From a virus, in IMG/VR virus record IMGVR_UViG_3300007735_000795, positions 34,767 through 98,766 of that record: 64,000 nt of DNA, one strand, 5' to 3'. Under the pieces are notes generated by a model, which had not been told where the DNA came from, ran no database searches, and saw only the letters and a list, made by a program, of their open reading frames with translations. Below, piece after piece: positions 2,947 to 31,214 of the stretch (the stretch's first letter is position 1; each line of letters starts with the position of its first letter). The translations under genes and the position numbers were made by a program.

Positions 2947-3084
2947 TTATTTTGACCAGCCGCAGCCACCATTTTGATGAACATTTGTTCTAGAAATGCT
3001 TCCTGGTCTATACCATGCTGGTTTTTGGGCTACACATGAATAAAACAAAATTGAAATTAAAATAAGTTTAAGTGCTGTTTTCAT
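2947..3084 (-). CDS. Small lipoprotein
   Basis: 45 aa. MKTALKLILISILFYSC is a short signal peptide ending in a cysteine at residue 17, consistent with a lipobox (FYSC is not ideal). The mature part is short and contains GGCGW near the end. ATG 3084 overlaps the stop of the phosphoesterase gene. It may be an envelope protein made during infection; function unknown. Confidence 0.55.
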   Translation of the reverse strand: MKTALKLILISILFYSCVAQKPAWYRPGSISRTNVHQNGGCGWSK

Positions 3085-3806
3085 AATTTATTAATTTTTA
3101 TTTGTTTGTTTTCGTATACTAAATATTGTGGTTGGTTGTCTAATACATCAATAAAGTAATAACGTCCACCAGTTGCTTTACCTTTAGTATCAATTTCATT
3201 TACACTAGTATGACCAACTACTTGAATGTATTGTTTTTTCATTGGGTGTCGTTTTAACACTTTCATTAGACTTCTAGGACGAATCCAAATCGGTGTTTGA
3301 AATGTATCATCACCATAAGGATCACTATGTCCATATCCATTATCTGCAAATTTGAATTTATGTGGTTGAAAATACCATAAGTCATTTATAAATTCAACCA
3401 CGTCTTGTCCATCCCATCCACAATTTTTTAACCATTCAGGACTAACACCAGCATGACTAAATAACAAATCATCATACTGATAAGTCATTTGTAAATGGTG
3501 TCTGTTTGTTTCTAGTATGTTACCAATTTCCAAATAAAGACTATGTTGGAATCCACTATAACGTTCATTACAAATATTCATATAATGAAAGTCATGATTA
3601 CCAATTAGCATTATCACTTCACATTGTGGGTTTTCTAATTTCCAACGTACAATGTTTTTGAAGTTATGGATTTGGTCTATACCTGGAATGTCAAAACTAT
3701 CAAAGTAGTCTCCTACAAATACAACAGTATTTGGTTGTTCTTTTTCTAGAATTTGTTCCCAAACATTACGACCATGAATGTCTCCTATTGCTACTAACTT
3801 ATGCAT
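3081..3806 (-). CDS. Calcineurin-like metallophosphoesterase
   Basis: 241 aa. The metal-binding motifs occur in the expected order: GDIHGR (8-13), GDYFDS (32-37), GNHD (69-72), SHAGVS (117-122) and a C-terminal GHTS near 196. This is the layout of the PPP/diadenosine-tetraphosphatase-like branch of the calcineurin superfamily, which also includes lambda phosphatase. Substrate cannot be told: protein phosphatase, Ap4A hydrolase or 2',3'-cyclic phosphate enzyme are all possible. It overlaps the upstream gene by 8 bases. All catalytic residues look intact. Confidence 0.85.
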   Translation of the reverse strand: MHKLVAIGDIHGRNVWEQILEKEQPNTVVFVGDYFDSFDIPGIDQIHNFKNIVRWKLENPQCEVIMLIGNHDFHYMNICNERYSGFQHSLYLEIGNILETNRHHLQMTYQYDDLLFSHAGVSPEWLKNCGWDGQDVVEFINDLWYFQPHKFKFADNGYGHSDPYGDDTFQTPIWIRPRSLMKVLKRHPMKKQYIQVVGHTSVNEIDTKGKATGGRYYFIDVLDNQPQYLVYENKQIKINKL

Positions 3807-4365
3807 AATACCATCTGTTATTATTATACTCTGCTACTGAATTGTATTCAGCCATTTCACTATAAAGTGATTTTACTGTTTGATGAATTTCGTTTAATGG
3901 TTTATTAGTTGCTAATTGTTCACCTAACAAATAAGCAAATAAATTATTTGATTCCGTTACTTGTATTTGATTTGCTTTTACTCTACAGTAACGTGCTTCA
4001 CCAGTTTCACTGATAAACATACCTGAGTATAAACCTTTCAATTTATGATAATTTACAAATCGATCAGCATTACACCACAAGTACAATACATTGTCTTTTT
4101 TTCTTAATGCTTCAACACATCCATCTCCTATAACATAAGATGAACTAAGCATACCTGGTGTATTAAATTCAAACTGTCCTGCTGTAAACAAACCATTTGG
4201 CGAACCATGTCCCATAAGTAAAATACGATCATGCATTCCTATTAGTTGGATGATGGATTGTTTATCTGTTCCACCAGTAATAACTGTTTTATTAGGAATG
4301 TCTTTGTAGATTCGTTTTAAGAAATCTGTTGTTCTGTCTTTTGGATGAATTACCAGTGTTGTCAT
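3799..4365 (-). CDS. Caspase/CHAT-like candidate with His-Cys pair
   Basis: 188 aa from ATG 4365 (MTTLVIHPKD). The frame stays open to 4395, but the -7 box of the upstream promoter sits at 4381-4388, so a start there could not be transcribed from it. The core has strand-GHGSPNG (His 53) and, 45 residues later, a hydrophobic strand ending in LWCNADRF (Cys 98). This His-then-Cys spacing after two core strands recalls clan CD (caspase/CHAT/C25) peptidases. I recall similar small proteins in Bacteroidota genomes. Peptidase activity is inference. Confidence 0.5.
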   Translation of the reverse strand: MTTLVIHPKDRTTDFLKRIYKDIPNKTVITGGTDKQSIIQLIGMHDRILLMGHGSPNGLFTAGQFEFNTPGMLSSSYVIGDGCVEALRKKDNVLYLWCNADRFVNYHKLKGLYSGMFISETGEARYCRVKANQIQVTESNNLFAYLLGEQLATNKPLNEIHQTVKSLYSEMAEYNSVAEYNNNRWYYA

Positions 4366-4414: not shown

Positions 4415-4744
4415 TTAACGCAGAAGTGTTACATTTCCTTTGATTTTCTTTTCAGTTATGGCTGGTTCTGTTTCTAACCATGTTAACAAATACACATATT
4501 TGTCTGATTGAGAATAGTATTCATTTCCACCTAACCATGGTTCGTTTTGGTTTTGTGATTCAAAAACCAATTCACCATAACAATTATAAATTCTAAGATG
4601 ATAACGGCTTAATGTGTCTTGAGACGAAACCATAAACACATCGTTGTGTCCATCACCATTAGGTGAAAATGCATTTGGAACGTATACTTGAGAACAAGTA
4701 GTAAAACTAAGGAATAATAATAAAGAAGTTAAATAACATTTCAT
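4415..4744 (-). CDS. Secreted stand-alone CHU_C / type IX sorting domain protein
   Basis: 109 aa. A signal peptide (residues 1-18, MKCYLTSLLLFLSF) is followed directly by VPNAFSPNGDGHND (22-35), then RIYNCYGELVFES (51-63), a W-L-G-G turn, a YVYLLTW strand and a final GNVTLLR. These are the hallmarks, in order, of the gliding-motility-associated C-terminal domain used as a type B sorting signal by the Bacteroidota type IX secretion system. Normally it ends very large proteins; here it is the entire mature protein. The ATG overlaps the stop of the spanin-like gene. It may be exported to the host surface or compete for the secretion machinery; both are inference. Confidence 0.8.
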   Translation of the reverse strand: MKCYLTSLLLFLSFTTCSQVYVPNAFSPNGDGHNDVFMVSSQDTLSRYHLRIYNCYGELVFESQNQNEPWLGGNEYYSQSDKYVYLLTWLETEPAITEKKIKGNVTLLR

Positions 4745-5184
4745 AAAAAGTAAAATAGAGCTGCTACTCCTAATATAAGTGTTCCTTCACCAATAGCAAT
4801 TCTTCTCCAAATTCTTTTTCGATTGTTTTCTTTTTCCAAATCAACTTGAGACTTTTTTAACAACACAGAACATTCTATGGCTTCATTTTTCCAATCATTG
4901 GCCTTTACTTCTAATTGATTGTATTTTATATTCAATTGATTATAAGAGTCTAATGAATGTATTAAAGCATCAGTACATGCTTCTGAGTACTTAAACATTG
5001 AGTCAAGATTTGACTTGTATATTTCTTTATACTTATAAGTCTTTAGGACTTCGTCCTCCTGTTTTTTGTTTAAGAATATCCCAGTATCCCCCTGGTATAC
5101 TATCCTCACTGGTATTAATTTTTGTCCAAATACTGTCACGTTCAGGATTATTAAGCTTAGGAATATCAATAATTTTTTTAGCAT
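4741..5184 (-). CDS. Envelope protein with signal peptide and C-terminal TM; spanin candidate
   Basis: 147 aa. The signal sequence (1-20, ending VFGQ) has no lipobox cysteine. A coiled-coil stretch covers about 75-120 (NIKYNQLEVKANDWKNE...), and a hydrophobic C-terminal segment (about 129-147) ends the protein. Its first 152 bases are embedded out of frame in the 3' end of the upstream TM/coiled-coil gene, the arrangement usual for Rz/Rz1 spanin pairs. One anchor at each end also fits a unimolecular spanin, although that type normally has an N-terminal lipobox. Confidence 0.5.
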   Translation of the reverse strand: MLKKLLIFLSLIILNVTVFGQKLIPVRIVYQGDTGIFLNKKQEDEVLKTYKYKEIYKSNLDSMFKYSEACTDALIHSLDSYNQLNIKYNQLEVKANDWKNEAIECSVLLKKSQVDLEKENNRKRIWRRIAIGEGTLILGVAALFYFL

Positions 5185-5419
5185 CTTTTTTATTTTGTTT
5201 TACTGTGTTGTCTATTAAAGCCGTTTGTTTATTATTAAAGTCAGTTTGAAGAGCAATATGTGCTTTAGTTAAACTGTCAACTGTGCGTCCTAAACGATCA
5301 ATTGCTCCTGTGTCTTTAACTTCAATTGTAACTGGTGGTTTATTATAAAGCATAACAATAACAACTAACATTGCTATCATAATTAAATAATACCAGTTTT
5401 TTGTAAAAAATGTTTTCAT
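5033..5419 (-). CDS. Rz-like inner-membrane spanin candidate
   Basis: 128 aa. One N-terminal membrane segment (about 9-25, YYLIMIAMLVVIVMLY) is followed by a periplasmic helical region (35-75, DRLGRTVDSLTKAHIALQ). This is the topology of an i-spanin or Rz protein. Its ATG overlaps the stop of the holin candidate and its 3' end overlaps the next gene by 152 bases. The neighbouring endolysin-like genes support a lysis role. No sequence-level match to a named spanin is claimed. Confidence 0.5.
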   Translation of the reverse strand: MKTFFTKNWYYLIMIAMLVVIVMLYNKPPVTIEVKDTGAIDRLGRTVDSLTKAHIALQTDFNNKQTALIDNTVKQNKKDAKKIIDIPKLNNPERDSIWTKINTSEDSIPGGYWDILKQKTGGRSPKDL

Positions 5420-5688
5420 TGTCCAGATTCGTTTGTTGTATTAGTAGTATCAGTTGGTGGTGTAGATGGTTTTCTGAATATGTTTTCAAATGTAGTAATA
5501 CCAAGTAAACTACCAGCCAATAAGCAAATTGCTTCAAACATGTATTCAGGTAATTCTATGTCTCTTAATAAAGCAGCATAACAAAAAATAACTATGTTTA
5601 CTAGTATAAAAATACCAGCAACACGTTTTGATGATACACCACTATTACTTGACACTACTTTGTCAATCCAGTATTTTTTAGTTTTCAT
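5416..5688 (-). CDS. Holin candidate
   Basis: 90 aa with two membrane segments (about 22-41 and 47-66), a charged N-terminus and a polar threonine/proline-rich tail (RKPSTPPTDTTNTTNESGQ). Size, topology and position between the endolysin-like gene and the spanin-like pair fit a class II holin. Holins share little sequence, so the call rests on topology and context. Confidence 0.55.
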   Translation of the reverse strand: MKTKKYWIDKVVSSNSGVSSKRVAGIFILVNIVIFCYAALLRDIELPEYMFEAICLLAGSLLGITTFENIFRKPSTPPTDTTNTTNESGQ

Positions 5689-5689
5689 A

Positions 5690-6235
5690 TTAAAATTCTT
5701 TTAAAAGTGTATATGTAAATTGGTTTAATCCTGATGCTTCACAAGCATTAATTAATGTTTTGAAATTAGTTGGGTTGTTTATTACTTGACAACCAGCAGA
5801 CCATTTATCAACAAATTTACTAATAAAATTTGGATTTGCTCTGTGAATATTAATACCAAAAATACCAGTATCAGTAATTGCTGTTTCTTCAGCAATTGCA
5901 TCCCTGTCTTTGTCTCTAAACACAGTAATTGGTTTGCATTGTACTAATGCTTTGTATTGGTTACGGTGTAATCCTAATTTCCAAGAATTAATGTATTGGC
6001 CTGGTTTTAGTAAAGCAGTGCCTTTAGGATTCATCAAATTTTTTAACCAATGTGTTCCTGGATTAGTTGTTCCTGTAAACCAAGACACATTGGAATTATT
6101 TATTAAACCAATTAAGTCATCAAATTCATTTGGTTTATTAGCATTTGAACGTATTCCAACGATATGAAAACTCGGGAATTGGTACCCGAGTCTATCAAAT
6201 TGGTTTTTTAATTCTAAATAACTGTATAATCGCAT
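5690..6235 (-). CDS. L,D-transpeptidase-like peptidoglycan enzyme (endolysin candidate)
   Basis: 181 aa without signal peptide. The C-terminal half has GIFGINIHRA followed by VDKWSAGCQVI, equivalent to the HxG...SxGC active site of YkuD-type L,D-transpeptidases with His and Cys retained. The upstream part has SWFTGTTNPGTHWL and a KPGQYINSWKLG strand. I recall phage proteins with these segments annotated as putative endolysins. It precedes the holin candidate by one base. The ATG is just left of an inverted repeat (6238-6265). Confidence 0.65.
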   Translation of the reverse strand: MRLYSYLELKNQFDRLGYQFPSFHIVGIRSNANKPNEFDDLIGLINNSNVSWFTGTTNPGTHWLKNLMNPKGTALLKPGQYINSWKLGLHRNQYKALVQCKPITVFRDKDRDAIAEETAITDTGIFGINIHRANPNFISKFVDKWSAGCQVINNPTNFKTLINACEASGLNQFTYTLLKEF

Positions 6236-7923: not shown

Positions 7924-8589
7924 TTACTGGTTCTGCTTAATTAAATTAGCAACTGATTCACCATTTAACAATAAATGCTCTTTAAATTCATCTGTAAAGC
8001 AGCATCCATTTTCTTCTTTAGATTTAATAAATTCTTTAGGTACATCACTAAATACCCAGTCAACTACTAATATTCCTATTAAATTACCATTTGGTGTTCC
8101 AAATTTAGAACTGCCCCTGTCATAAATTGGAATAGCAGCTGATGCTTGGGTGCTTGTTTTTCTGAGTAATGCCTTAGTGGTTATGTCTTCTATTTTTTCT
8201 ATGTCATTATAGAAAAATTTATTTTCAATTGTAGACTTGATAAGTGAAGTATAGTGACTTACAAAGAAATTTATCATGTTGTTTGATAGTGGTTCTAAAC
8301 CATCAGATGTTCTTTCGTAAGTAACAGATGCTTTCTGCATTGGAGAGTTAGTATAAAACGTTCCACCATTGTGAAACTGAATTAAGTATACTCTGTCTGC
8401 TTCATATTCGTTTTTAATTTCCTCAACTGTAAGATGAATGATTTCATCTTTATTAATTTGAGTCATTAATTTTTTTCTAGAACTGGATTGGTGTTTTTCG
8501 TCTAACCATTTCTTAAAATACCCCGCCGTTATTAGTGTAACTATTATTGACGTGACTGAAGTAATCACAGTTATAATAATACTTTCCAT
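7924..8589 (-). CDS. Membrane-anchored GAF-like sensor candidate
   Basis: 221 aa. An N-terminal membrane segment (about 3-25) is followed by a short helix and a domain with VYLIQFHNGGTFYTNS, a long helix, then AAIPIYDRGSS...NGNLIGILVVDWVF. The pattern of a strand pair, helix and second strand pair fits a GAF-type sensor. FHNGG is a motif I recall from bacterial GAF-like proteins. It is immediately followed in the genome by a SpoIIE phosphatase gene (8652-9548), a classic input/output pairing. Confidence 0.45.
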   Translation of the reverse strand: MESIIITVITSVTSIIVTLITAGYFKKWLDEKHQSSSRKKLMTQINKDEIIHLTVEEIKNEYEADRVYLIQFHNGGTFYTNSPMQKASVTYERTSDGLEPLSNNMINFFVSHYTSLIKSTIENKFFYNDIEKIEDITTKALLRKTSTQASAAIPIYDRGSSKFGTPNGNLIGILVVDWVFSDVPKEFIKSKEENGCCFTDEFKEHLLLNGESVANLIKQNQ

Positions 8590-8651: not shown

Positions 8652-9548
8652 TTAGAATTTTATTCCTATAACAGTAATGTCATCTGTTTGTTCAAATCCG
8701 TGTTTCCATTTATTAATTTCAAATTCTATTTTTTTATACTGTTCAAGTATAGGTTCATAGTGAATTGATTGTAATAATTCATAGAACTGTTTTGTAGTAA
8801 ATTTTTTATCATTTTCACCTCCAAACTGGTCTACATACCCATCTGTATACAAATACAATGTATCATCCTCTTCATATTCAATTTTGGTTTGAGTAAATGT
8901 TTTTTCACCTACACCTCCAATTCCAAATCGATTACCTTTTAATTCATGGATTTGGTCTTTTTTAAATAAAACTGATTTGTGTTTTGCTCCTGCAAAGTGT
9001 AATTGTTTATTTTGTTTATCAATTTTAATTATAGCCATGTCCATACCGTCTTGTATGGATTGGTTTATTCTATTTTGTTTTAGAGTTGTTTTTACCAGTC
9101 TATCCATTTCAAATAGTATTTGAGGCAAATCATATATTTTATTCTCAACCACAATTTGATTTAAAAAACTATTCCCCAGCATAGTCATAAATGCTCCTGG
9201 TATTCCATGTCCTGTACAGTCTGCACAAACAATAATGTAATTGTGTTCATTTATTTTGTGAAACCAAAAAAAGTCTCCACCAACAATGTCTTTTGGTTTA
9301 TAAAAGAAAAATGAAAGAGGAAGATATCTTTTGATAAATTCCTCTCCTGGTAGTAATACTTTTTGAATTTCGTGAGCGTACTTTAGACTTAAAACCAATT
9401 CATGTTTTCGGAATTCAAGTACTTTATTTTTATTTTCTAATTCAGTTTTTATTTTTGAAAGTTGAGTAACAACAGATTGTGTTTTCTTTTTGTATGAAAA
9501 AGACACAATAAAAAGAATTAGTAAAAACAAACATATTATTCCAACCAT
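8652..9548 (-). CDS. SpoIIE/RsbU-type PP2C serine phosphatase, membrane anchored
   Basis: 298 aa. One N-terminal TM (1-18), a coiled coil (about 28-62), then a PP2C-SpoIIE domain: GGDFFW (90-95), DCTGHGIPGAF (110-120), LYTDGYVDQFGG (about 232-243) and a final DDITVIGIKF. The metal-binding aspartates of the three motifs are present. In bacteria these phosphatases control anti-anti-sigma factors, and in Bacteroidota they often follow sensor modules. The gene abuts a lipoprotein gene (stop and start share a base). A phage copy could alter host stress signalling; that is inference. Confidence 0.85.
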   Translation of the reverse strand: MVGIICLFLLILFIVSFSYKKKTQSVVTQLSKIKTELENKNKVLEFRKHELVLSLKYAHEIQKVLLPGEEFIKRYLPLSFFFYKPKDIVGGDFFWFHKINEHNYIIVCADCTGHGIPGAFMTMLGNSFLNQIVVENKIYDLPQILFEMDRLVKTTLKQNRINQSIQDGMDMAIIKIDKQNKQLHFAGAKHKSVLFKKDQIHELKGNRFGIGGVGEKTFTQTKIEYEEDDTLYLYTDGYVDQFGGENDKKFTTKQFYELLQSIHYEPILEQYKKIEFEINKWKHGFEQTDDITVIGIKF

Positions 9549-11447: not shown

Positions 11448-11645
11448 TTATTGTTCGTCTTCAATTTGTTTTTCAGGTACACTTGTTACTTGAGGATTAT
11501 CATTTGGTTGATCTGCTTGATTCATGTATTCTCCATTTTGGTCATAAATTTGTTTATTTATTTGACGATACAAATTGTAAAATACAAGAACTATCATGAC
11601 TATTAGTCCTGCTATTACTAAAAGGGTTGTTGTAAAAGTACTCAT
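11448..11645 (-). CDS. Small single-pass membrane protein
   Basis: 65 aa. One N-terminal membrane segment (about 5-24, LLVIAGLIVMIVLVFYNLY), then a polar acidic tail. ATG 11645 overlaps the upstream stop by 4 bases. Function unknown. Confidence 0.6.
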   Translation of the reverse strand: MSTFTTTLLVIAGLIVMIVLVFYNLYRQINKQIYDQNGEYMNQADQPNDNPQVTSVPEKQIEDEQ

Positions 11646-18051: not shown

Positions 18052-18083
18052 TAAATATAATAACAGAGAATTAAAGAATCAAA
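18052..18083 (-). promoter_or_regulatory. Bacteroidota-type promoter
   Basis: Minus strand TTTG, 20 bases, TATATTTA. The -33 box overlaps the 3' end of the glycosyltransferase gene. The -7 box is only 6 bases from ATG 18046, implying a nearly leaderless mRNA. Confidence 0.5.
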
Positions 18084-18957
18084 TTATTTCGTATTCTATT
18101 TCAATGTCTGAAAAACCCCATGTATCTGAATTTTCAGTTTTGTTTTGATAAATTACAGCTCTATATTGATCATTCATTTTTTTATTAACTCCATCTGCTA
18201 TACCACCTCCTCCCCATCCTTTAGAACCATGGTTGATATGAAACATAGGAGGTTCAAATATAGCTTTTAATCCAAAACCATGCATAGCTGCTTTTTTCTG
18301 TACATTTGTATCTGAAAATAAAGCATAAATTAGTTCTTCTTCAAATCCTCTAATTTCATTCCATATATGTTTAGGAGCAAATTGGAAATCACCACAACAG
18401 TTAATTAAACTATAATCATCTCCAGACACTATTTTTTCATATACTTCTCGTTTTTCTGAGTTAATTGAGATATAATCTCTTAATTTATCCCAGTCTTGGT
18501 ATTTTAAGTCACCTCCATGAAATTTTTTAATTTCATCCCATGTTGTTTCTCTTCTACTAAGAGTGATCATTGTATTATCACCATTGATTTTAATGATATT
18601 TTCAACATCTTCTCTTTTAGGATGTATAATATCAATATTAGTAGAAACAATCCAATCACCTTCAGCTCGTCTAATACCAATATTACGTCCTAATACTTCA
18701 CAACATTTTTGAGCATCAGGATCATGATATGTTAAATAAGAGGTTGCTGAAGGTGGAATTACAAAATGTTTTAGATTACCTTTTAATTGAAGATTATCTT
18801 TAACATCATAAAGTAAACTATGAGTCTCTGAATTCCAGTCAACATATATTACTTCATCATAGGTATGGATAGCTGAGTTAAGGGCATATGTGGCTCTTTC
18901 TAAAAGATTACCACCATAATTATCATTTCTTGATACTACTACTGCTGATATTTTCAT
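18079..18957 (-). CDS. Family 2-like glycosyltransferase
   Basis: 292 aa. The GT-A start MKISAVVVSRNDNYGG is followed by YDEVIYVDWNSETHS and GDWIVSTNIDIIHP, the usual nucleotide-sugar-binding strands with an acidic motif (NID in place of DxD). The C-terminal half has FQFAPKHIWNEIRGFEE, typical of family 2 enzymes. Sugar and acceptor unknown. It is the last gene of the glycan block. Confidence 0.7.
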   Translation of the reverse strand: MKISAVVVSRNDNYGGNLLERATYALNSAIHTYDEVIYVDWNSETHSLLYDVKDNLQLKGNLKHFVIPPSATSYLTYHDPDAQKCCEVLGRNIGIRRAEGDWIVSTNIDIIHPKREDVENIIKINGDNTMITLSRRETTWDEIKKFHGGDLKYQDWDKLRDYISINSEKREVYEKIVSGDDYSLINCCGDFQFAPKHIWNEIRGFEEELIYALFSDTNVQKKAAMHGFGLKAIFEPPMFHINHGSKGWGGGGIADGVNKKMNDQYRAVIYQNKTENSDTWGFSDIEIEYEII

Positions 18958-18958
18958 A

Positions 18959-19735
18959 TTAATCTTGTTTTATATTCCATTTATTTTTAATAACATCAAT
19001 TTGGTTTAAACTTACTTGGTATTTTTCATTATCAGGATGAATTAAAATACAATCTTCATTATTTCCAATAAAATATCTATAGTTTTTATACCCCATATTT
19101 TTTAGAAAGTTTAAAGCTTTTTTATCTATTTCTGTATTACTATTTTCTAATAAAACAACAGGTTTATTTTTATTTAAAGTTTCTTTAGCTCCTAAAAAAG
19201 CATAATATTCATATCCTTGTATATCTATTTTGATTAGATCAGGATTGATATTTATTGAATCTAAAGGTATGACTTCTATTTGATCATGTTCTCTAATTTC
19301 ATTTGAATTATATGAGGCTTCTTTATGTTCAATTCCTCTTCCTCCCCAGTTATAACATCCATTACCAACCCAGCTTTCATTTTCAATATCCCACATCTGT
19401 TGTATTTCATTTTTTTCACCTAAAGCTAATCTGTAAGGTATTACTGTGTTGTCTAAATCATTAAATAATATGTTAGTACATAGCTGGTTATATATCATAG
19501 GTTGGGGTTCAAATGCGTGGACTTTTTTGGTTAATCTTCCAAATTGGACAGCATGAAATCCTAAATTTGCCCCAGCATCTATACAAATATCATCTTTAGT
19601 TAATATATTAGAGTAAAAATCATATAAATGGGATTCCCATGATTTATATCGAAGGATATTAATTCCTATAAGATCATATTCATTAACTAAAAAATTACCA
19701 AGATTAGTTTGTACTATTTCAAATGATTTATTCAT
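18959..19735 (-). CDS. FkbM-family methyltransferase
   Basis: 258 aa. The SAM-binding motif CIDAGANLGFHAVQFG (about 52-67) is followed by VHAFEPQPMIYNQL and LIKIDIQGYEYYAFLGA, the standard FkbM signatures. These enzymes O-methylate sugars and other small molecules. It lies inside the glycosylation block and overlaps the next gene by 8 bases, consistent with methyl-capping a glycan. Confidence 0.85.
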   Translation of the reverse strand: MNKSFEIVQTNLGNFLVNEYDLIGINILRYKSWESHLYDFYSNILTKDDICIDAGANLGFHAVQFGRLTKKVHAFEPQPMIYNQLCTNILFNDLDNTVIPYRLALGEKNEIQQMWDIENESWVGNGCYNWGGRGIEHKEASYNSNEIREHDQIEVIPLDSININPDLIKIDIQGYEYYAFLGAKETLNKNKPVVLLENSNTEIDKKALNFLKNMGYKNYRYFIGNNEDCILIHPDNEKYQVSLNQIDVIKNKWNIKQD

Positions 19736-20561
19736 TATAATATTTTTTAAAGTTATTCCAAAAATTTTCCGCTATGTTTTCTTTATCTAAAAGTATTCCA
19801 CCTAAATGATATATCATAGCTTCATTCACGAATTCAAAAGTGTTTATTAATTTAGTGAATTCATTCCAATCCTCCCAAAATATCCATCCTCTTTTGCCTG
19901 GGTATATATAAGATAATTGGAGGTTAAATATTTTAGAAATCCAACTTATTTTATCAGAATATAATTCTTGTAAAGCAATACAAACCGCAGTATTATCCAT
20001 AGCATCTAATCTTTTTCCTCCTTCCTTGCCTATTCCTTTAACATGACAATTTATATCTTTTTCTTTATAGTAATATTCCCTATAAGGAATTAAAGCAGTT
20101 TGAAAATCTTTAAGATATTCAGCTTTCATTGAAACAAATCCAGCGTTAAAGAATCCTTTAACAAAAGAATATATTTTAGGATTAAAATCTAACCATTGAT
20201 TAAAATGATAAGGAGGTGTTCCTGTTCCTGATTGGTCAGAAACTACAGCTATTTCAATGTTATTTTCATCAAAGATCTTATTGAAATCAAAAGCATCCCA
20301 TCTAATTATAGTATCAGCATCTATAAATGTTACTCTATTATATTCCAATGGTGAAAAGTCAACTTCTAACCATCTATCATAACACATAGCAGCATAATCA
20401 AATTCATTAGTATCATTTATATATTTATCTCCTTCAATTAAGTGAAGATATATATTGTATTTATCACAATAAAATTTCCATGTGTTAATACAAGCACTAT
20501 ATTCTTTACTTTTTAATAAAGAATTATAGGTTGCTATTACTATAGCGTTTTTTTTACTCAT
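19728..20561 (-). CDS. Glycosyltransferase with DAD motif
   Basis: 277 aa. IVIATYNSLLKSKEYSACINTWKFYC at the N-terminus and FIDADTIIRWDAF in the middle (DxD-type metal motif), then AVVSDQSG and GFFNAGFVSMKAE resemble GT-A enzymes of the family 8 type. A gly-rich HLGGIL near the C-terminus fits. Donor and acceptor cannot be read from the sequence. Confidence 0.65.
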   Translation of the reverse strand: MSKKNAIVIATYNSLLKSKEYSACINTWKFYCDKYNIYLHLIEGDKYINDTNEFDYAAMCYDRWLEVDFSPLEYNRVTFIDADTIIRWDAFDFNKIFDENNIEIAVVSDQSGTGTPPYHFNQWLDFNPKIYSFVKGFFNAGFVSMKAEYLKDFQTALIPYREYYYKEKDINCHVKGIGKEGGKRLDAMDNTAVCIALQELYSDKISWISKIFNLQLSYIYPGKRGWIFWEDWNEFTKLINTFEFVNEAMIYHLGGILLDKENIAENFWNNFKKYYNE

Positions 20562-20575
20562 TTTGAAACTAAATT

Positions 20576-21142
20576 TTATTTAAATCTCAAAGCCATAATT
20601 TCATCTATATTATTCACATTCATTCTTAAATCTAAGATATGCATGTTATTAAGTTGTTTTTTTAAATAAAAAAGATTCATACAATAATTTTCTAAAATAT
20701 CTTCACATACTAACACACCTCCCTCATTTAAAAGAGAATAATAGTTTCTTAAAAAATATTCTTGAGACTCCCAAGTATGAGGTCCATCATCTATAATAAT
20801 ATCAAACATCCCCTCCTTTTCTATAAGCATATCAATCATATCTTTAGTATAAGCATCATACTCAGAACCAGCATATAAAGTTACTTTATCATTAGGAATA
20901 GATCCTTTATATATTTGATTATCAAGTCCTACATATTTTTCTACATAAGATATGTTTGAAAAAGGACCTACAGATCCTTCTCCAAATAAACTAACTCCTA
21001 TTTCTAACACTTTAAGAGGTCTATTAAATTTTAAGTATTGAGAATTAAAAATTAAATCATATACTATTCCGTATTGATGAGTGGTATTCTTATCAGAAGT
21101 ACCAGTTAAAAGAATTTTTCCTACATTACAATAATTTTCCAT
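20576..21142 (-). CDS. Class I SAM-dependent methyltransferase
   Basis: 188 aa. LKVLEIGVSLFGEGS (SAM motif I), YVGLDNQIYKG (acidic motif II), DIIIDDGPHTWESQEYFLRNYYSLLNEGGVLVCED (motifs IV-V). This is the pattern of methyltransferases found in polysaccharide and antibiotic clusters. Substrate unknown, probably a sugar. Confidence 0.75.
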   Translation of the reverse strand: MENYCNVGKILLTGTSDKNTTHQYGIVYDLIFNSQYLKFNRPLKVLEIGVSLFGEGSVGPFSNISYVEKYVGLDNQIYKGSIPNDKVTLYAGSEYDAYTKDMIDMLIEKEGMFDIIIDDGPHTWESQEYFLRNYYSLLNEGGVLVCEDILENYCMNLFYLKKQLNNMHILDLRMNVNNIDEIMALRFK

Positions 21143-21158
21143 ATTATTTTATTTTTTA

Positions 21159-22166
21159 TCATTTATTTTTTAAGTAATTAATAACTTCATTAACTGATTC
21201 TTCTAATGAGATTTTAGCTTCAAATCCTAATACTTCTTTTGCTTTAGTCACATCTGGGATTCGTTTTTGAACATCATATTCAAATGGCTCATCATGAATA
21301 ATTTTAAATTCTTCATTTGGGTTAATAGTGTTCCATACTATTTTAGCTAATTCTAAAACACTAGTAGATTGAGGAGTAGAGATATTAAAATCTTCATTAA
21401 TAGCCTTTTCAGATTCCATTACCATTCTAATTCCTCTAGCTAAATCTTTACCATTTGTGTAACATCTAACTTGATTTCCTTCTCCTAGAATATGAAGTGG
21501 GTTTTGTCCTTTTAAAACTTTATTAATTAAATCTGGTAGTACATGTGATAACATAAGTTTTATGTTTCCTGATGTTATTTCATGTTCTGAGATAGATTCT
21601 TCTTCTCCAATGCCTACACAATTAAAAGGTCTGACTATTGAATAAGGCAAACCATATTGCTCCCAGGCTCCTTTAGCAAAATATTCAGATGCTAATTTCT
21701 GGAATCCATAAGTTGATGATGGTGGTGGGCAAACTTTTATTTCAGTTTCAGGAGTTGGGTATAAAGTTGTTTCTTCAAATACCATAGAACTTGATAAGAC
21801 AATAATACGTTCCAAATATCCTTCTTTATATCCTTTAATAGCAGCATCAAAGGTTTGAGCTAATATTCTTTCATTTGTAGCTAATAAATCATAAGCAAAT
21901 TTATGAAAATAAGATATACCTCCAATCATAGCAGCACCAGCTATAATCATATCAGGACGCTCTTTATCTACAACATCTAAAAATTCAGATGATAATACAT
22001 CTATATTATAAAGTTTAAAATTAGGATGATTATCATGTGGTCTACTAATTTTACCATATTTTTGATAATTATCAATTCCAATTACTTTATACCCATTATT
22101 TAATAATTCATTGCATATGTAACTTCCAATGAATCCTTGGCTGCCTGTTAATACTATTTTTTTCAT
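21159..22166 (-). CDS. NAD-dependent sugar epimerase/dehydratase (extended SDR)
   Basis: 335 aa. The Rossmann motif GSQGFIG (8-14), VLSSSMVF and the catalytic pair Tyr-x3-Lys in STYGFQK, then VRPFNCVG and GNQVRCYTNGKDLARGI mark an extended SDR of the GDP-fucose synthase/UDP-glucose epimerase group. Precise activity is open. Overlaps the neighbouring dehydrogenase-like gene by 4 bases. Confidence 0.8.
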   Translation of the reverse strand: MKKIVLTGSQGFIGSYICNELLNNGYKVIGIDNYQKYGKISRPHDNHPNFKLYNIDVLSSEFLDVVDKERPDMIIAGAAMIGGISYFHKFAYDLLATNERILAQTFDAAIKGYKEGYLERIIVLSSSMVFEETTLYPTPETEIKVCPPPSSTYGFQKLASEYFAKGAWEQYGLPYSIVRPFNCVGIGEEESISEHEITSGNIKLMLSHVLPDLINKVLKGQNPLHILGEGNQVRCYTNGKDLARGIRMVMESEKAINEDFNISTPQSTSVLELAKIVWNTINPNEEFKIIHDEPFEYDVQKRIPDVTKAKEVLGFEAKISLEESVNEVINYLKNK

Positions 22167-22954
22167 AATCTCATTCCTTCAAAAACTGTTTTAGTGAATT
22201 TATTGTTTTCTTTATCTATAATATAAAATAATTCTAAATCTAAGCCTAACTCTTTTACTAAAGAATCTAAAGCTTTAGTATCTTTTGGTAAACACATTCC
22301 AGCGTATCCTCTAAAATTATCATTAACATCTAAATATATATCTTTTGTTGTTCCTCTTTTAATAAAAGCATTTTTAATGTCACTATAATTAACATTTAAC
22401 TTTTGACATATTTCATATACTTCATTAGCAAATGTTATTTTTAAAGCATTATATACATTAGAATAATATTTTAATAGTTCTGCTTCTGTTGGTTTTAATT
22501 GAACAATATTTTTAGGATAATTCCCATGACATTTTTTAACTAAATTAAATATATGTTCTGATTCAGTACCTATAGCTAATAAATCATGATTTTCAGTAAA
22601 ATCAGTTATAGCACATCTTTCTCTAAGAAATTCAGGAACAAAACATATTTTTAAATTAGTTTGTTCAATTAATTTTTGAGTTGTTGTTGGTTTAACTGTT
22701 GATTTTATTGCTATTACTCCTTGATAGTTTAACTCTTTTAAATCTAATACTACTTGTTCAACTATAGAAGTATCACATGATCCATCTTCATTACTAGGAG
22801 TTGGAACACACACATAAATTATTTCACAATTTATAAGATCATTCAATTTAGTTTCCATAATGATATCATGAACTAATACTTTATGTCCTAATTTTTCAAA
22901 ACCAAATTTACAAGCTGAGCCTATAATACCTAAGCCTACTATTCCAATTTTCAT
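22163..22954 (-). CDS. Short UDP/GDP-sugar dehydrogenase-like protein (lacks C-terminal domain)
   Basis: 263 aa. GIVGLGIIGSACKFGFEKLG (NAD-binding), YVCVPTPSNEDGSCD, STVKPTTTQ, FVPEFLRE and GMCLPKDTKAL, with the catalytic Cys of the usual GGSCFPKD. The C-terminal UDP-binding domain of these ~430-residue enzymes is absent although the frame ends cleanly. It may bind a different substrate or be a degenerate copy of the complete enzyme at 25065-26414. Confidence 0.7.
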   Translation of the reverse strand: MKIGIVGLGIIGSACKFGFEKLGHKVLVHDIIMETKLNDLINCEIIYVCVPTPSNEDGSCDTSIVEQVVLDLKELNYQGVIAIKSTVKPTTTQKLIEQTNLKICFVPEFLRERCAITDFTENHDLLAIGTESEHIFNLVKKCHGNYPKNIVQLKPTEAELLKYYSNVYNALKITFANEVYEICQKLNVNYSDIKNAFIKRGTTKDIYLDVNDNFRGYAGMCLPKDTKALDSLVKELGLDLELFYIIDKENNKFTKTVFEGMRL

Positions 22955-22960
22955 ATTGTT

Positions 22961-23878
22961 TTATTTTTGAGGTAAATTATTTATTCCTTTTTCTAAAAAC
23001 ATCTGCATGTTAGCTTCAAATTTTTGTCTTTGAATTGGTGGGGTAAAATCTGGGATTAGTTTCATAAATTTTCTATAGTATGAATTAAATTCCATTCCTT
23101 TCAAATTCATATCAGCCATATCTAATACAGTTTGGCCTTTTAATAGATACTGTTGGAAATCATATCCTTTATTTTTAGCATACTCACTTAACATCATTGA
23201 ATACCAATCCCAAGGCCCATATCCTTTCCAGTCATCATGTACTGGGCATAGGTTTTCATAGAATTCTTTATTATATAGATCAAACCACCATGCCCATTTA
23301 CTTCTAGAAGTGGGTATTAAAGACATTTCTTCATTGTTTATTTTTAATTGATGTCTAACTTCATAAAGATCATACTTTTCCCATTCAGAATAAGGTACAT
23401 TTAAATAATTAGAATTTGTTATTTCATCCCATGTTGAGTCCCATCTTTTATATATTTGGGGTGTTACAACAAAATATTTGTTTGTTATTACTCTAGTTGA
23501 TTCTATTAATAATGCTAATAAATGTTCACTAAAATAAAAATCAGGACATACACCAATATAATAATCTATTTCAGATGATATGCTTTCTCTTTGTAAATTC
23601 AAATAACCATATATTTCATCTCCTTCATATGTTCGTTTTATATGAGTGTAATTATTTAACAGTAAAGAAATATCATCATATTTAGTTTTAAAAAAATCTT
23701 TAGATAATTGACTTTCATTCCAATTAACAAATTTACTAGATAAATTTAATACTGTTTCTATAATAACATTAGCATCTTTAGGAAGATAATAATATGACTT
23801 TTTCAATTGACTAAAAGTTAATAGAGCATTGTCTATCTCCCAAGGCATTATATGGATTTTTAATTTAATATTCATCAT
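22961..23878 (-). CDS. Unknown protein in glycan cluster
   Basis: 305 aa. Starts MNIKLKIHIMPWEIDNALLTFSQLKKS; has YYIGVCPDFYFSEHLLALLIESTR, a strand followed by an acidic/aromatic region as in GT-A transferases, and later WWFDLYNKEFYENLCPVHDDWKGYGPWD. I cannot place it in a family with certainty; a glycosyltransferase is the likeliest reading from its location. Confidence 0.5.
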   Translation of the reverse strand: MMNIKLKIHIMPWEIDNALLTFSQLKKSYYYLPKDANVIIETVLNLSSKFVNWNESQLSKDFFKTKYDDISLLLNNYTHIKRTYEGDEIYGYLNLQRESISSEIDYYIGVCPDFYFSEHLLALLIESTRVITNKYFVVTPQIYKRWDSTWDEITNSNYLNVPYSEWEKYDLYEVRHQLKINNEEMSLIPTSRSKWAWWFDLYNKEFYENLCPVHDDWKGYGPWDWYSMMLSEYAKNKGYDFQQYLLKGQTVLDMADMNLKGMEFNSYYRKFMKLIPDFTPPIQRQKFEANMQMFLEKGINNLPQK

Positions 23879-25068
23879 ATAATATTAATAAATTTTCCTA
23901 CAAATCCCAAATTTCTTAAATAAGATTCTATTTCAAAAGAAATATGCCAAGCGTTATTTAATATTCCCTTTTCATTTTTTATTGATTCATTATCACTAAT
24001 AATAGGAATACGTGTGCCTGGAATAAAGCAACCAATTTTTAATGATCCTGGTTTCTCATATACACACTCAATATGTTGTTCATTTAATCCTAATAAAGCA
24101 ATAGGAATAGCTGCTCTAGCGGGAAATGCTTTTGCTTTTATTTTTCCATTTTCTTTAATATACTCTAATACTTCATTTCTTTTTTCTTGTTTCCATATTT
24201 TAATAAAATTATTCATTTCATTAAATTTATTAAAAAATCTACTTTCATTATTTAATATTTCTTTTATATTTGAAGGAACAACTTTATGATATTTTTTATC
24301 TCCTATTATAACTCTAATGTTACCACCATATCGAGATGGGAATTCAACTGACAATACATCTAGATTTAATGTTTTAGCAATGTGTATAAAACTATTTAAA
24401 CTATATGTTCTAGGATGTTCATGATAAAATGTATCAAATTGATTTTTATCTAAAACACCTCCTAAATAATGATTTTCAATCACTAATAATGTTTCTGGTT
24501 TAGATACATTAGAAATTGCTTTTAATAAATTGTTTAGATCTTCAATGTGAGCAAACACATTAGTAAAAGTAATTATATCTGCTTTAATATGATTTTCAGC
24601 TAACTCTGGGGTAAAATAATCTTTTACTATGTAATGATGTTTATTAATAGCATCATGAGCAGCATCTGTTGGCTCAACACCAAAAGTAATAGCTCCTTTA
24701 TTTTTAAATATATCTAATAAACTACCATCATTGCATCCAACATCCAGTATATTTTTTCCTTTTAAATCAATAAAATTTATTTCTAAATATTCTACTAGTT
24801 TTTCCATACCTTTTATTACATCAGCTGTAAATCTAGCTCGATAATGGTAATCAGAAGGAAATAGTTTCTTTTTAGGTATTTGATATGTTTGATGTGCTGT
24901 GTAGCATTTTTCACAGTAATGTATATCTATGGGATATTTCTCATTTATATCATTTGAGGTTGTAGGAATTAATTCATCACATATAGGGTGCAATCCAAGA
25001 TCTAACACAGGGGTTAAAGTTTCATTTCCACATACCTCACAGGTGTTTATTCTAATTACATCATTCAT
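23875..25068 (-). CDS. Sugar C-methyltransferase-like protein with N-terminal zinc domain
   Basis: 397 aa. The N-terminus has CEVCGNETLTPVLDLGLHPICDEL and HYCEKCYTAHQ, the four-cysteine zinc domain of TylC3-type C-methyltransferases. A SAM motif NILDVGCNDGSLLDIF (about 105-120) and NVFAHIEDLN follow, and the C-terminal third has AFPARAAIP...ECVYEKPGSLKIGCFIPGTRIPI, typical of this family's second domain. It would methylate an NDP-sugar carbon. Confidence 0.85.
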   Translation of the reverse strand: MNDVIRINTCEVCGNETLTPVLDLGLHPICDELIPTTSNDINEKYPIDIHYCEKCYTAHQTYQIPKKKLFPSDYHYRARFTADVIKGMEKLVEYLEINFIDLKGKNILDVGCNDGSLLDIFKNKGAITFGVEPTDAAHDAINKHHYIVKDYFTPELAENHIKADIITFTNVFAHIEDLNNLLKAISNVSKPETLLVIENHYLGGVLDKNQFDTFYHEHPRTYSLNSFIHIAKTLNLDVLSVEFPSRYGGNIRVIIGDKKYHKVVPSNIKEILNNESRFFNKFNEMNNFIKIWKQEKRNEVLEYIKENGKIKAKAFPARAAIPIALLGLNEQHIECVYEKPGSLKIGCFIPGTRIPIISDNESIKNEKGILNNAWHISFEIESYLRNLGFVGKFINII

Positions 25069-26414
25069 ATTTTAGTATATCCAAAGGTTAAGTAATTAAT
25101 ATTTTCTATTTCTATTGTTGTAAATAATCTTTTAGTATCAAATAAGAGTATATTTTTTGCTTTAATTAAAGAAAAATAATTTCTTAATTTTAAATACTCT
25201 AGCCAGTTTGTACCCACTACAATTATATCAGTTGTAGCTATTTCTTTAATCCAATCATCAGTGAAAGTTAAATTAGGATTATTATATTGTTTTTTAGTAT
25301 GTTCAATAGCTATAGGATCATGAGCTACAACTTTAATATTATTTTCTAATAGTGAAGATAATATTTTTAATGAACTAGACTCTCTAATATCATCTGTTTC
25401 AGGTTTAAAAGCTAATCCAAGTAATAAAATATTTTTATTAGTTAAATTATTATATCTTTTTTTAAGCATGTTTATTACTTGAGATGGCTGTTTTTCATTA
25501 GTGTTTAAAACAGCATTAGTCACATTCATGTTTAGTCCTAAACTTTCACCTTGAGTTCTAATAGCTTGAACATCTTTAGGGAAACAACTTCCTCCAAATC
25601 CAGCCCCTGGGGTGAAATAAGCAGATATAGGAGGGGTTATTCTTTTATTTTCAATTATAGGACTCCATCTTTTATCACTAATAACTCCTTTAATAACATC
25701 ATTATAATCAATATTACTAATTTCTGAAGCTAGATTAGCTAGTTCATTATTTATGGAGATTAAATTAGCTAATAAGGTATTATTAGTGTATTTAATCATT
25801 TCAGCAGTTCGAGTATTAGTATAAATTTTATCACAATTCCATGGATAATAAATTTCTTCTAGATATTGTTTTGTAGTTTCATCTTCATAACCTATAACAA
25901 TTCTATCTGGGTTGGTAAAGTCTAATACTGCTTCTCCTTCTTTTAAAAATTCAGGATTCATTCCTAATCCAAACTCACCTAATTTTTTGCCTGATGTTTT
26001 TTCAATAATATTTTTAACAAAAGTATCTGTTGTAGTAGGTATAACTGTGCTTTTTATTATTACTGAAAGGAATTTATTGGATTCTTTAATGTAGTTTCCT
26101 ATTTCAATACTAGCATTTTTAATTTGAGTTAAATCAATTTTCCCATTTTCAGATGGAGTTCCAACTGCTAATATCACTACATTACTTTGATCTAATGCTT
26201 CACTAATATTAGTAGTAGCTCTAAAGTGATTGTTTTTTATTACTTGATATAATAATAATTCTAATCCGTTTTCATATATATGTAAAATACCTTTATTAAG
26301 ATTTTCAACTATATCTTTACGAAGATCTACACAAGTAACATTATGACCTTTACTAGCCAAACATACTCCTGATACTAGCCCAACATATCCTGTACCTACT
26401 ATTGTTATATTCAT
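25065..26414 (-). CDS. UDP-glucose/GDP-mannose 6-dehydrogenase
   Basis: 449 aa, full length. GTGYVGLVSGVCLASKG (NAD site), GTPSENGKIDL, KSTVIPTTTDTF, MNPEFLKEGEAVLDF, and the catalytic GAGFGGSCFPKDVQAI, then the C-terminal domain with LGLAFKPETDDIRESSSLKI. It oxidises UDP-glucose to UDP-glucuronate (or GDP-mannose to GDP-mannuronate). It is adjacent to a UXS-like gene that would decarboxylate UDP-glucuronate. Confidence 0.9.
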   Translation of the reverse strand: MNITIVGTGYVGLVSGVCLASKGHNVTCVDLRKDIVENLNKGILHIYENGLELLLYQVIKNNHFRATTNISEALDQSNVVILAVGTPSENGKIDLTQIKNASIEIGNYIKESNKFLSVIIKSTVIPTTTDTFVKNIIEKTSGKKLGEFGLGMNPEFLKEGEAVLDFTNPDRIVIGYEDETTKQYLEEIYYPWNCDKIYTNTRTAEMIKYTNNTLLANLISINNELANLASEISNIDYNDVIKGVISDKRWSPIIENKRITPPISAYFTPGAGFGGSCFPKDVQAIRTQGESLGLNMNVTNAVLNTNEKQPSQVINMLKKRYNNLTNKNILLLGLAFKPETDDIRESSSLKILSSLLENNIKVVAHDPIAIEHTKKQYNNPNLTFTDDWIKEIATTDIIVVGTNWLEYLKLRNYFSLIKAKNILLFDTKRLFTTIEIENINYLTFGYTKI

Positions 26415-27502
26415 TATTGATGATTTTTATAATAATTGTATATTCGAGTTAATCCTTCTTCTAAACTAACTTGAGGATTATATTTTAATAAAGTTTTAGA
26501 TTTAGTAAGGTCAGGACATCTTTTTTGTGGGTTATCTGTTAAATAATTTTTATCAGAACTCACTTTATATTCATATTCAAATTCATCATTCCCTTTAACA
26601 ATTTTAGAAATTGTTTTAGCTAAATCTAACATTGTTATTTCAGGACCATCTGTGCCAATATTAAATGCTTCACCATTATAATCTGAAAGTAACATCTGTA
26701 AATAACCAGTAACAGCGTCTGAAATGTAACAGAATGTTCTTGTCACATGACCATCTGATAAAATTTCTATTTTATTCCCATTTAATATATTACTAAAAAA
26801 ATCAGGAATAACTCTCTTATCTCCAAGTCTTAATCCAGGTCCATAATTGTTAAAAGGTCTAGCTACTTTAATTGGGATACCATATTGTTGATAAAAATTG
26901 ACACAAAGTGTTTCTCCATATCTTTTAGATTCATCATAACAAGCTCTTGGACCTGTACAACTTACATTACCTCTATATGTTTCTTTAGTTGGAATATTCT
27001 CAGGATCAGGATCACCATATATTTCACTTGTTGAGAAAAATAAGAAACTTTCACATGGGTTTTCTTTAACAAAATCTAATAAATTTCTAAGTCCTATTAC
27101 ATTAGCATCCATGGTTTCTATAGGATGTAATCTATAATAAGTTGGAGAAGCAATTGTAGCCGCATGGATAATAAAATCAGATTTTGGAAGAGATGATATC
27201 TTATTAATATCTGCTTCTATAATATCTATATCTTTTCTGTCTTTAATAGATTCATACCAATCTGGTACTCCTCTAATAAAGTTTTCTATAACATATAATT
27301 TACAAGGTTTAGATAATATATTTAAATCATTTAATAATGAAAAATAATAAACAAAATATGTACCTAAAAATCCTCCTCCTCCAGTTAATAGAATATTTTT
27401 TCCTTCAAATCGAGAATTATCTATTCTACTTATAATTTCTTTAATGTCTTGTTCTATAATACTGTCTACCATACTTTCCATTCTGCTTGATTTTTGTTCC
27501 AT
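26414..27502 (-). CDS. UDP-glucuronate decarboxylase-like extended SDR
   Basis: 362 aa. GGGGFLG NAD site, STSEIYGDP, GPRACYDESKRYGETL with Tyr-x3-Lys, RPFNNYGPG and TRTFCYISDAVTGY. The GPRxCYDExKR stretch and the R(P/I)FN.YGP motif are those of UXS/UDP-glucuronate decarboxylases, close to dTDP-glucose dehydratases. The frame overlaps the rfbF gene; a start at ATG 27472 would reduce the overlap to 7 bases. With the dehydrogenase at 25065 it would convert UDP-glucose to UDP-xylose. Confidence 0.8.
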   Translation of the reverse strand: MEQKSSRMESMVDSIIEQDIKEIISRIDNSRFEGKNILLTGGGGFLGTYFVYYFSLLNDLNILSKPCKLYVIENFIRGVPDWYESIKDRKDIDIIEADINKISSLPKSDFIIHAATIASPTYYRLHPIETMDANVIGLRNLLDFVKENPCESFLFFSTSEIYGDPDPENIPTKETYRGNVSCTGPRACYDESKRYGETLCVNFYQQYGIPIKVARPFNNYGPGLRLGDKRVIPDFFSNILNGNKIEILSDGHVTRTFCYISDAVTGYLQMLLSDYNGEAFNIGTDGPEITMLDLAKTISKIVKGNDEFEYEYKVSSDKNYLTDNPQKRCPDLTKSKTLLKYNPQVSLEEGLTRIYNYYKNHQ

Positions 27503-28233
27503 AAATTATTTAAATTGTTTTTTTCTTTAGCTGTATCCATACATTCCCAAAATCCATAATGTTTATAGCTAGTTAACTCATTTTCATTAGCTATTTGTTC
27601 AAGGACATCTGATTCAAATATAGTCTCATCTCCTTTAATATAATTAAATACTTCTGGTTCGCAAACAAAAAATCCACCATTAATCCAAGGACTGTCACTT
27701 CTTCTTTTCTCAATAAAGGATTTAACTAAAATATCATCTTTAATTTCTAACCCACCAAATCTTCCAGCTGGTTGGACAGCTGTTACTGTTATTTTTCTTT
27801 TATATTCTTTATGATGATGAACTAATTTATTAATATCAATATCTGCTACTCCATCTCCATATGTTAATAAAAAAGTATCATTTATATGTGGTTGGATTCG
27901 TTTTATTCTCCCTCCAGTCATTGATTCTAAACCAGTGTCTATTAATGATACTTTCCAAGGCTCATTAATTTGATTATGAATTTGAATATCATTAGTAGTA
28001 TAATCAATAGTGACATCTAGATCATATTTAAATCTATTTAGGAAATATTCTTTAATAACATATCCTTTATATCCTAAACATATAATAAAATCATTAAATC
28101 CATAATATGAATATGTTTTCATGATATGCCAAAGTATAGGTTTACCCCCAATTTCTACCATTGGTTTAGGGATTAAATCTGTATATTCAGCTAATCTAGT
28201 TCCATAACCTCCCGCTAATATTACAACTTTCAT
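27466..28233 (-). CDS. rfbF: Glucose-1-phosphate cytidylyltransferase
   Basis: 255 aa, the family's usual length. Nucleotidyltransferase signature LAGGYGTRLAEYTDLIPKPMVEIGGKPILWHIMKTYSYYG (7-46), TYGDGVADIDI (metal site), PAGRFGGLEI, INGGFFVCEPEVF and FWECMDTAKEKNNLN. It joins CTP and glucose-1-phosphate to CDP-glucose, the entry to CDP-dideoxyhexoses. No canonical CDP-glucose dehydratase is evident nearby, unless the UXS-like SDR does that job. Confidence 0.9.
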   Translation of the reverse strand: MKVVILAGGYGTRLAEYTDLIPKPMVEIGGKPILWHIMKTYSYYGFNDFIICLGYKGYVIKEYFLNRFKYDLDVTIDYTTNDIQIHNQINEPWKVSLIDTGLESMTGGRIKRIQPHINDTFLLTYGDGVADIDINKLVHHHKEYKRKITVTAVQPAGRFGGLEIKDDILVKSFIEKRRSDSPWINGGFFVCEPEVFNYIKGDETIFESDVLEQIANENELTSYKHYGFWECMDTAKEKNNLNNLWNKNQAEWKVW

Positions 28234-28259
28234 TATATTAAATTATTAAACTTAAATGT

Positions 28260-28883: not shown

Positions 28884-28889
28884 ATAACT

Positions 28890-29361: not shown

Positions 29362-29367
29362 AATCTT

Positions 29368-31213: not shown

Positions 31214-31214
31214 T

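What the first reader, a model, noticed from the sequence alone, without database searches (positions are those of the whole stretch)
4415..4744. Phage-encoded stand-alone type IX secretion sorting domain
The mature protein is nothing but a CHU_C/type B sorting domain (VPNAFSPNGDGHND...IYN.YGE.VFES...G.VTLLR) behind a signal peptide. Such domains normally route huge adhesins and enzymes through the Bacteroidota type IX machinery. A free domain could be exported on its own, jam the secretion machinery, or change the cell surface during infection. The stop overlaps nothing essential, so it is maintained as its own gene next to the lysis genes.
Basis: partly seen in the sequence, partly recalled or inferred. 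Interest (0 to 1): 0.75.

Follow-up and report, generated by a model that had tools for sequence, protein, structure and literature searches.

The report
Phage protein of only secretion signals
A virus of Bacteroidota bacteria carries a tiny gene for a protein that is nothing but the address label of the bacteria's type IX secretion system, and unrelated phages carry similar label-only genes, which suggests that the label itself does something to the infected cell's surface.

Summary
Window 4415-4744 (-) encodes 109 aa: a signal peptide followed by one complete type B (CHU_C/TIGR04131) T9SS sorting domain, well over the curated cut-offs, with a confident predicted fold. The record is a T4-like phage. 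The gene overlaps the stop of orf147 in a lysis-type cassette, but that place is not conserved: 0 of 8 relatives with the cassette have it there, so it is an accessory gene. It is not a chance ORF: label-only or nearly label-only CHU_C genes occur in several other phage lineages, those tested are under purifying selection (dN/dS 0.08-0.39), and one origin is weakly rejected (p-AU 0.027). In five bacterial genomes 1 of 101 CHU_C frames is <=142 aa, and that one lacks a signal peptide. Phage-borne T9SS cargo is known (type A, "Cryophage", PMC7468147); I found no report of a cargo-less form. Best reading: the host T9SS exports it and it occupies a host PorP/SprF-type carrier, altering adhesin display and possibly excluding other phages. 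Export and function are inferred, not shown.

The parts
4415..4744 (-). Stand-alone type B T9SS sorting-domain gene (109 aa)
   Evidence: PF13585 1.8e-16, TIGR04131 1.1e-12, AF2 model with block mean pLDDT 93-96 over most of the domain, dips to 74 and 85
4691..4744 (-). Signal peptide, residues 1-18, cleavage proposed S18|Q19
   Evidence: read from sequence; hydropathy peak 1.96; Q19 invariant in A1; no predictor run
4418..4684 (-). CHU_C/TIGR04131 domain, residues 21-109, ends GNVTLLR
4741..5184 (-). orf147: signal peptide, coiled coil, C-terminal hydrophobic segment (by eye); its TGA overlaps the CHU_C ATG (ATGA). Possible outer spanin/u-spanin
   Evidence: homologues at the same place beside the i-spanin in 8 relatives; spanin role inferred
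5033..5419 (-). Rz-like inner spanin candidate, overlaps orf147
   Evidence: phrog_739 Rz-like spanin E 0.003, weak
5416..5688 (-). small membrane protein, holin candidate
   Evidence: no family match; conserved next to the endolysin in L176-L179; role inferred
5690..6235 (-). endolysin candidate
   Evidence: phrog_3000 1.2e-39 (unknown function), phrog_33083 endolysin 6.4e-16
3799..4365 (-). orf188, downstream neighbour, conserved phage protein of unknown function
   Evidence: 27 viral relatives, alignment A3
3081..3806 (-). calcineurin-like phosphoesterase, next gene
   Evidence: PF00149 4.4e-9

Best explanation
It is a phage accessory gene for an exported decoy cargo. Sec takes the protein to the periplasm (inferred from the signal peptide). 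The mature protein, which is only the type B sorting domain, is recognised by the host type IX translocon and handed to a host PorP/SprF-type carrier, to which type B domains stay bound (inferred from published work on F. johnsoniae and P. gingivalis). Because it carries no cargo, it loads carriers with nothing. That would reduce display of host type B proteins such as gliding and adhesion adhesins and would change the infected cell's surface, the likely pay-off being exclusion of competing phages that need those structures. Shown here: the domain, its bareness, its phage context, its accessory position, its recurrence, and purifying selection in relatives. Inferred: export, carrier binding, competition and benefit.
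For: Complete type B domain by two curated models; confident Ig-like model, with T9SS substrate chains 8glk_D (NucA complex) and 8gl8_D (RemZ complex) and T9SS component PorZ (5m11) among the best PDB folds, E 6e-3 to 3.5e-2, and six viral folds at E 2.5e-8 to 7.4e-7, three of them named 'gliding motility-associated C-terminal domain'. Other label-only proteins: a seven-member set (L001, L002, L040, L045, L048, L051, L053), L006, L080, L169, L264. Purifying selection: NG86 dN/dS about 0.24-0.39 in 10 pairs of five sequences, 0.08 for L048/L053, 0.22 for L083/L084. Short forms are typical of phages: 20 of 52 distinct complete viral CHU_C ORFs <=210 aa in a scan seeded only with bacterial domains against 3 of 101 open frames in five bacterial genomes, Fisher p 1.8e-8. 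Literature: CTD sufficient for export and targeting when fused to a reporter, specific carrier needed, crosstalk exists (PMC12618676, sections 10, 11, 12 read); type B CTD not cleaved, bound by PorP-like protein, PG1035 proposed as 'a cap for PorP' (PMC9143113, discussion and passages); substrates remain bound to dedicated carriers (PMC12635249, passages); gldD/gldG mutants more phage resistant (PMC5682007, passage) and gliding machinery proposed as receptor (PMC7345892, passages).
Against: No export, binding or phenotype data. The motif B tryptophan (RWG), common in bacterial domains (74 of 89) and in phage proteins with cargo (32 of 33), is kept in only 5 of 15 stand-alone proteins; the window has CYG. 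Since each of five motifs was needed for secretion of SprB-CTD fusions (PMC12618676), some bare domains may be poor substrates. L264, found later, keeps RWG and was not in that count. The host and its carriers are unknown; no PorP_SprF gene was found in 12 phage records, but that search rang in no control. The gene is absent from the same slot in all 8 relatives with the cassette. For the window gene itself no ortholog was found, so no selection test was possible.
Confidence: 0.4

Rival explanations
1. Translocon jammer: the free domain enters the SprA translocon but, lacking a fully recognised carrier motif, is not ejected and blocks type IX export from the periplasmic side.
For: Loss of the RWG tryptophan in 10 of 15 stand-alone proteins; all five motifs needed for secretion of the SprB CTD fusion (PMC12618676).
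Against: The published motif mutants are described only as produced but not secreted; the section read reports no block of other substrates. The rest of the domain, including the C-terminal GNVTLLR, is intact.
Confidence: 0.17
2. Carried-over remnant: a deletion fused the signal peptide and the C-terminal domain of a former large surface protein; the product has no function of its own.
For: Relatives of this phage carry long CHU_C proteins (513-602 aa) upstream of thyA and type A cargo proteins; the window gene sits in a variable slot; no selection test was possible for it.
Against: The window domain is not nearest to the domains of those relatives in the tree but near bacterial ones (weakly resolved); a seven-member set of label-only genes stays label-only through diversification, with dN/dS well under 1 in the pairs tested; several origins are indicated.
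Confidence: 0.2
3. Anchor half of a two-part system: the exported domain holds another phage protein to the host surface non-covalently.
For: It is overlapped by four bases (ATGA) with exported-looking orf147; in L043/L049 a distant orf147-like gene lies two genes upstream of a long CHU_C gene.
Against: orf147 homologues occur beside the spanin without CHU_C in 8 of 8 relatives; the similarity of the L043 gene is weak and coiled-coil (E 5e-11 for a single pair).
Confidence: 0.12
4. Lysis accessory: it acts on the outer membrane together with the spanin pair.
For: Position directly after orf147 in the lysis-type cassette; L080 has a lipobox-like leader.
Against: The position is not conserved; I recognised no lysis cassette around 10 other short CHU_C loci; no spanin family match for the protein.
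Confidence: 0.08

Closest known systems
T9SS type B sorting domain (PF13585 / TIGR04131), e.g. the C-terminus of SprB
   Same: Whole domain, order of motifs, predicted fold
   Different: No cargo before it: the mature protein begins at the domain; CYG in place of RWG
Phage-encoded T9SS cargo proteins of 'Cryophage' (PMC7468147, passages)
   Same: A phage of Bacteroidota uses the host T9SS label; variable accessory genes; [quoted passage not shown]
   Different: Type A domains on an endoglucanase, a glycoside hydrolase and a PA14 protein, not a bare type B domain
UniProt phage entries named 'gliding motility-associated C-terminal domain' (e.g. A0A6J5L8Z9, 199 aa)
   Same: Same domain in phage proteins
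   Different: The six good matches are 187-1423 aa, with other sequence before the domain
PG1035 of Porphyromonas gingivalis (PMC9143113)
   Same: Type B domain protein bound to PorP; its authors speculate that it caps PorP
   Different: About 50 kDa and chromosomal

Membership tests
T9SS type B sorting domain (PF13585/TIGR04131) | match over the curated cut-off, full model length | tested here: met
T9SS type B sorting domain (PF13585/TIGR04131) | conserved motifs (PNAFSPNGDGHND; R-W-G; W-x-G; Y-x-Y; G-x-VTL-x-R) | tested here: inconclusive
   most kept; RWG is CYG in the window. The assignment of these motifs to the paper's A-E is mine; its Fig. 5 was not seen
T9SS type B sorting domain (PF13585/TIGR04131) | predicted fold like known T9SS substrate domains | tested here: inconclusive
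   T9SS chains among the best PDB hits, but E 6e-3 to 3.5e-2 and TM-score 0.38-0.44 by query
T9SS substrate | Sec signal peptide plus C-terminal sorting domain | tested here: met
   signal peptide read from sequence and hydropathy only, no SignalP; domain
T9SS substrate | export depends on SprA and a carrier | not testable with these tools
   needs an experiment
Superinfection-exclusion protein | expression protects the cell from other phages | not testable with these tools
   no assay; no PADLOC match, which covers host defence systems
Lysis protein (spanin) | spanin family match or conserved place in the lysis cassette | tested here: not met
   no PHROGs match; absent from the cassette in 8 of 8 relatives

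The most novel reading that the evidence does not exclude
Unrelated phages of Bacteroidota have repeatedly reduced or built a protein to a bare type B secretion label that titrates the host's PorP/SprF carriers, a carrier-capture weapon against host adhesins and rival phages. It would be a phage inhibitor aimed at the type IX system by molecular mimicry of its substrate.
Probability: 0.28. Interest if true: 0.82.

Novelty: new variant of a known kind. Interest (0 to 1): 0.6.

Why it matters
Type IX secretion builds the surface and gliding machinery of Bacteroidota, and mutants of that machinery can be phage resistant. A natural cargo-less substrate would be a ready tool: it asks whether the label alone is exported, whether carriers can be saturated, and whether phages manage the host surface in this way. 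It also questions the picture that sorting domains exist only to move cargo.

Tried and rejected
Chance ORF: rejected. Bacterial contamination as the source of the window: rejected (T4-like replication genes and a baseplate wedge protein). H3/L007 was set aside as a likely bacterial fragment (an excinuclease-like frame beside it; by eye). The short Saprospira frame (131 aa) was looked at: no signal peptide and, by eye, the upstream part of a long gene lies in another frame, so I do not count it as label-only. A conserved lysis role: rejected as a family property. A caspase-like reading of orf188 from its GHG and WCNADRFV motifs: not supported by the fold search. PHROGs: 0 of 55 members of A2 match any family. 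PADLOC: 0 of 6 proteins. PorP_SprF in phage records: no match, but the control rang nowhere, so uninformative. A second one-clade test (nine stand-alone rows) did not finish and is not used.

Rows dropped: near-identical CTD tails were collapsed and L004 and L007 left out before the counts; ORFs cut at the locus edge (6 at the 5' end, and any at the 3' end) and identical tails were dropped before the 52; the tree used every third bacterial row, 30 of 89. Selection effects: bacterial loci were seeded by PNGDGHND, so the histidine count is biased; the five genomes were chosen because they held hits; the 20 records were chosen by me and are no unbiased sample; Fisher tests ignore relatedness.

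Papers: searches in a library of open-licence PMC papers only. None listed a stand-alone T9SS domain in a phage; this is no proof that none is in print. PMC3393505 and PMC6755757 are not held.

Full report
What is there. The minus-strand ORF 4415-4744 encodes 109 aa. Its first 18 residues read as a signal peptide and the rest is one complete type B T9SS sorting domain: PF13585 E 1.8e-16 (60.4 bits, cut-off 27) and TIGR04131 E 1.1e-12 over model positions 3-85 of 85. PHROGs has no match, and none for any of 55 aligned members of the domain. The ATG overlaps the stop of orf147 (ATGA); orf147 overlaps an Rz-like spanin candidate, preceded by a small membrane protein and an endolysin candidate. 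The window is part of a 98,766-base virus record with one CHU_C match and no type A match. UvsX-like recombinase, DNA polymerase and a baseplate wedge protein mark it as a T4-like phage.

Structure. AlphaFold2 on a 55-row alignment gives mean pLDDT 85.5, with block means of 93-96 over most of the domain (dips to 74 and 85) and low values in the signal peptide. Foldseek lists T9SS chains among the best PDB hits (8glk_D E 5.8e-3, 5m11 PorZ 6.8e-3, 8gl8_D 3.5e-2), mixed with Ig-like domains of C5a peptidases; none is below 0.001, so this agrees with the family but does not by itself prove it. In the viral library six hits have E 2.5e-8 to 7.4e-7; three of the six are named 'gliding motility-associated C-terminal domain', and the six are 187-1423 aa long.

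Is it an isolated freak? No. Scans of IMG/VR and of phage records gave label-only proteins in other contigs: L001, L002, L040, L045, L048, L051, L053 (one set in the tree, support 96), L006 in the huge phage record LR756502, L080 (lipobox-like leader), L169 in huge phage record LR745206 and L264. L076 and L082-L084 have only a short linker before the domain. dN/dS (NG86) is about 0.24-0.39 for 10 pairs of five label-only genes, 0.08 for L048/L053 and 0.22 for L083/L084. A 78-row tree needs 7 changes of the stand-alone label against a shuffled mean of 13.8; one clade is rejected at p-AU 0.027, with only 94 columns and many open forks. The window's nearest rows there are CTDs of Chitinophagaceae and another Bacteroidota, a faint hint of host.

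Controls. In five Bacteroidota genomes 101 CHU_C matches pass the cut-off; open frames of <=142 aa: 1 of 101, <=210 aa: 3 of 101. The one short frame has no signal peptide. In the 80 best bacterial loci of a separate scan, 0 of 91 CHU_C ORFs are <=130 aa (the 34 complete ones are 195-965 aa). In a viral scan seeded only with bacterial domains, 52 distinct complete CHU_C ORFs include 4 of <=142 aa and 20 of <=210 aa; of the other 16, 14 are 183-198 aa and two are 208 aa, most looking like a signal peptide, one small domain and CHU_C (Fisher for <=210 aa p 1.8e-8, for <=142 aa p 0.046; relatedness ignored). Reduced T9SS-labelled proteins thus look like a phage habit.

Accessory position. In eight loci with the orf147/spanin cassette (G019, L181, L182, L183, L176-L179) no CHU_C gene follows orf147; different genes occupy the slot. 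Among 27 relatives of the downstream gene orf188, CHU_C appears in one fetched locus, 7.5 kb away. The nearest relatives carry other T9SS-labelled genes instead: a long CHU_C gene upstream of thyA in L043 and L049 (and in the more distant L039), and type A matches in G019, G021, G018, G023 (4 of 9 records searched). The lineage seems to use the host T9SS habitually and to swap these genes.

How it would work. Published work: type B CTDs are enough to export reporters and to send them to the gliding track or to static sites; each needs a PorP/SprF-type carrier, with some crosstalk; five motifs are needed (PMC12618676, sections 10, 11, 12 read). The type B protein PG1035 keeps its CTD and sits on PorP, perhaps as a cap (PMC9143113, discussion and passages). 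[quoted passage not shown] A bare domain would therefore occupy carriers without cargo. Some gliding mutants are more phage resistant and the machinery is a proposed receptor (PMC5682007 and PMC7345892, passages). I infer carrier capture with a surface or exclusion benefit (0.4).

Against it. The tryptophan of motif RWG is present in 74 of 89 bacterial and 32 of 33 phage cargo-bearing domains but in 5 of 15 stand-alone ones (Fisher p 4e-6 against cargo, not corrected for relatedness). L264, found later, keeps it. If this residue serves carrier hand-over, those proteins may jam the translocon; if it packs against cargo, its loss is expected. I could not decide.

Prior work. Phage-encoded T9SS cargo was reported for type A domains in 'Cryophage', with superinfection exclusion suggested (PMC7468147, passages), and T9SS sorting domains near BACON genes in gut phages (PMC6949934, passages). 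Searches listed no paper on a cargo-less form; only open-licence papers are held.

Noticed in passing
window 3799-4365 (-): orf188 belongs to a widespread phage protein family (27 viral relatives, 40-52% identity) with invariant GHG and WCNADRFV motifs and a confident alpha/beta model (mean pLDDT 92.8), yet no Pfam or PHROGs match at E<=0.1 and no clear PDB fold.
   Followed up: partly
window 11448-11482; L043 4454-6506; L049 4610-6556: Relatives carry a 513-550 aa CHU_C protein between the small gene W11448 and thyA; in the window these two genes overlap, so the large T9SS-labelled gene is present or absent at this point.
   Followed up: partly
L170 2033-3946 (-), L182, L196: Close relatives of this phage carry type A T9SS-labelled proteins near the SLT transglycosylase: a 637-aa protein (PF18962 match) and proteins of 720 aa (cut) and 756 aa with type A-like tails by eye.
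   Followed up: partly
L201, L209, L213, L215, L224, L234, L239, L242, L243, L251, L253-L255, L266-L268: Many phage contigs encode 183-208 aa proteins that mostly look like a signal peptide, one small beta domain and CHU_C, a size rare in the five bacterial genomes.
   Followed up: partly
window 8652-9548 and 7924-8589 (-): Phage-encoded SpoIIE/PP2C-type phosphatase with an N-terminal hydrophobic segment (PF07228 1.1e-24) beside a weak GAF-like protein: a possible signalling pair.
   Followed up: no
window 37127-38743 (-): Phage-encoded GroEL-like chaperonin of 538 aa (by sequence); a GroEL-like gene also lies upstream of the label-only gene in L053.
   Followed up: no
window 18079-32651 (-): About 14 kb of sugar nucleotide, glycosyltransferase and methyltransferase-like genes (NDP-sugar epimerases, UDP-sugar dehydrogenase, nucleotidylyltransferase), named by eye.
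   Followed up: no
window 44065-46014 (-): 649-aa protein of many SHAEG/ASG-type repeats, like trimeric adhesin head repeats (by eye).
   Followed up: no
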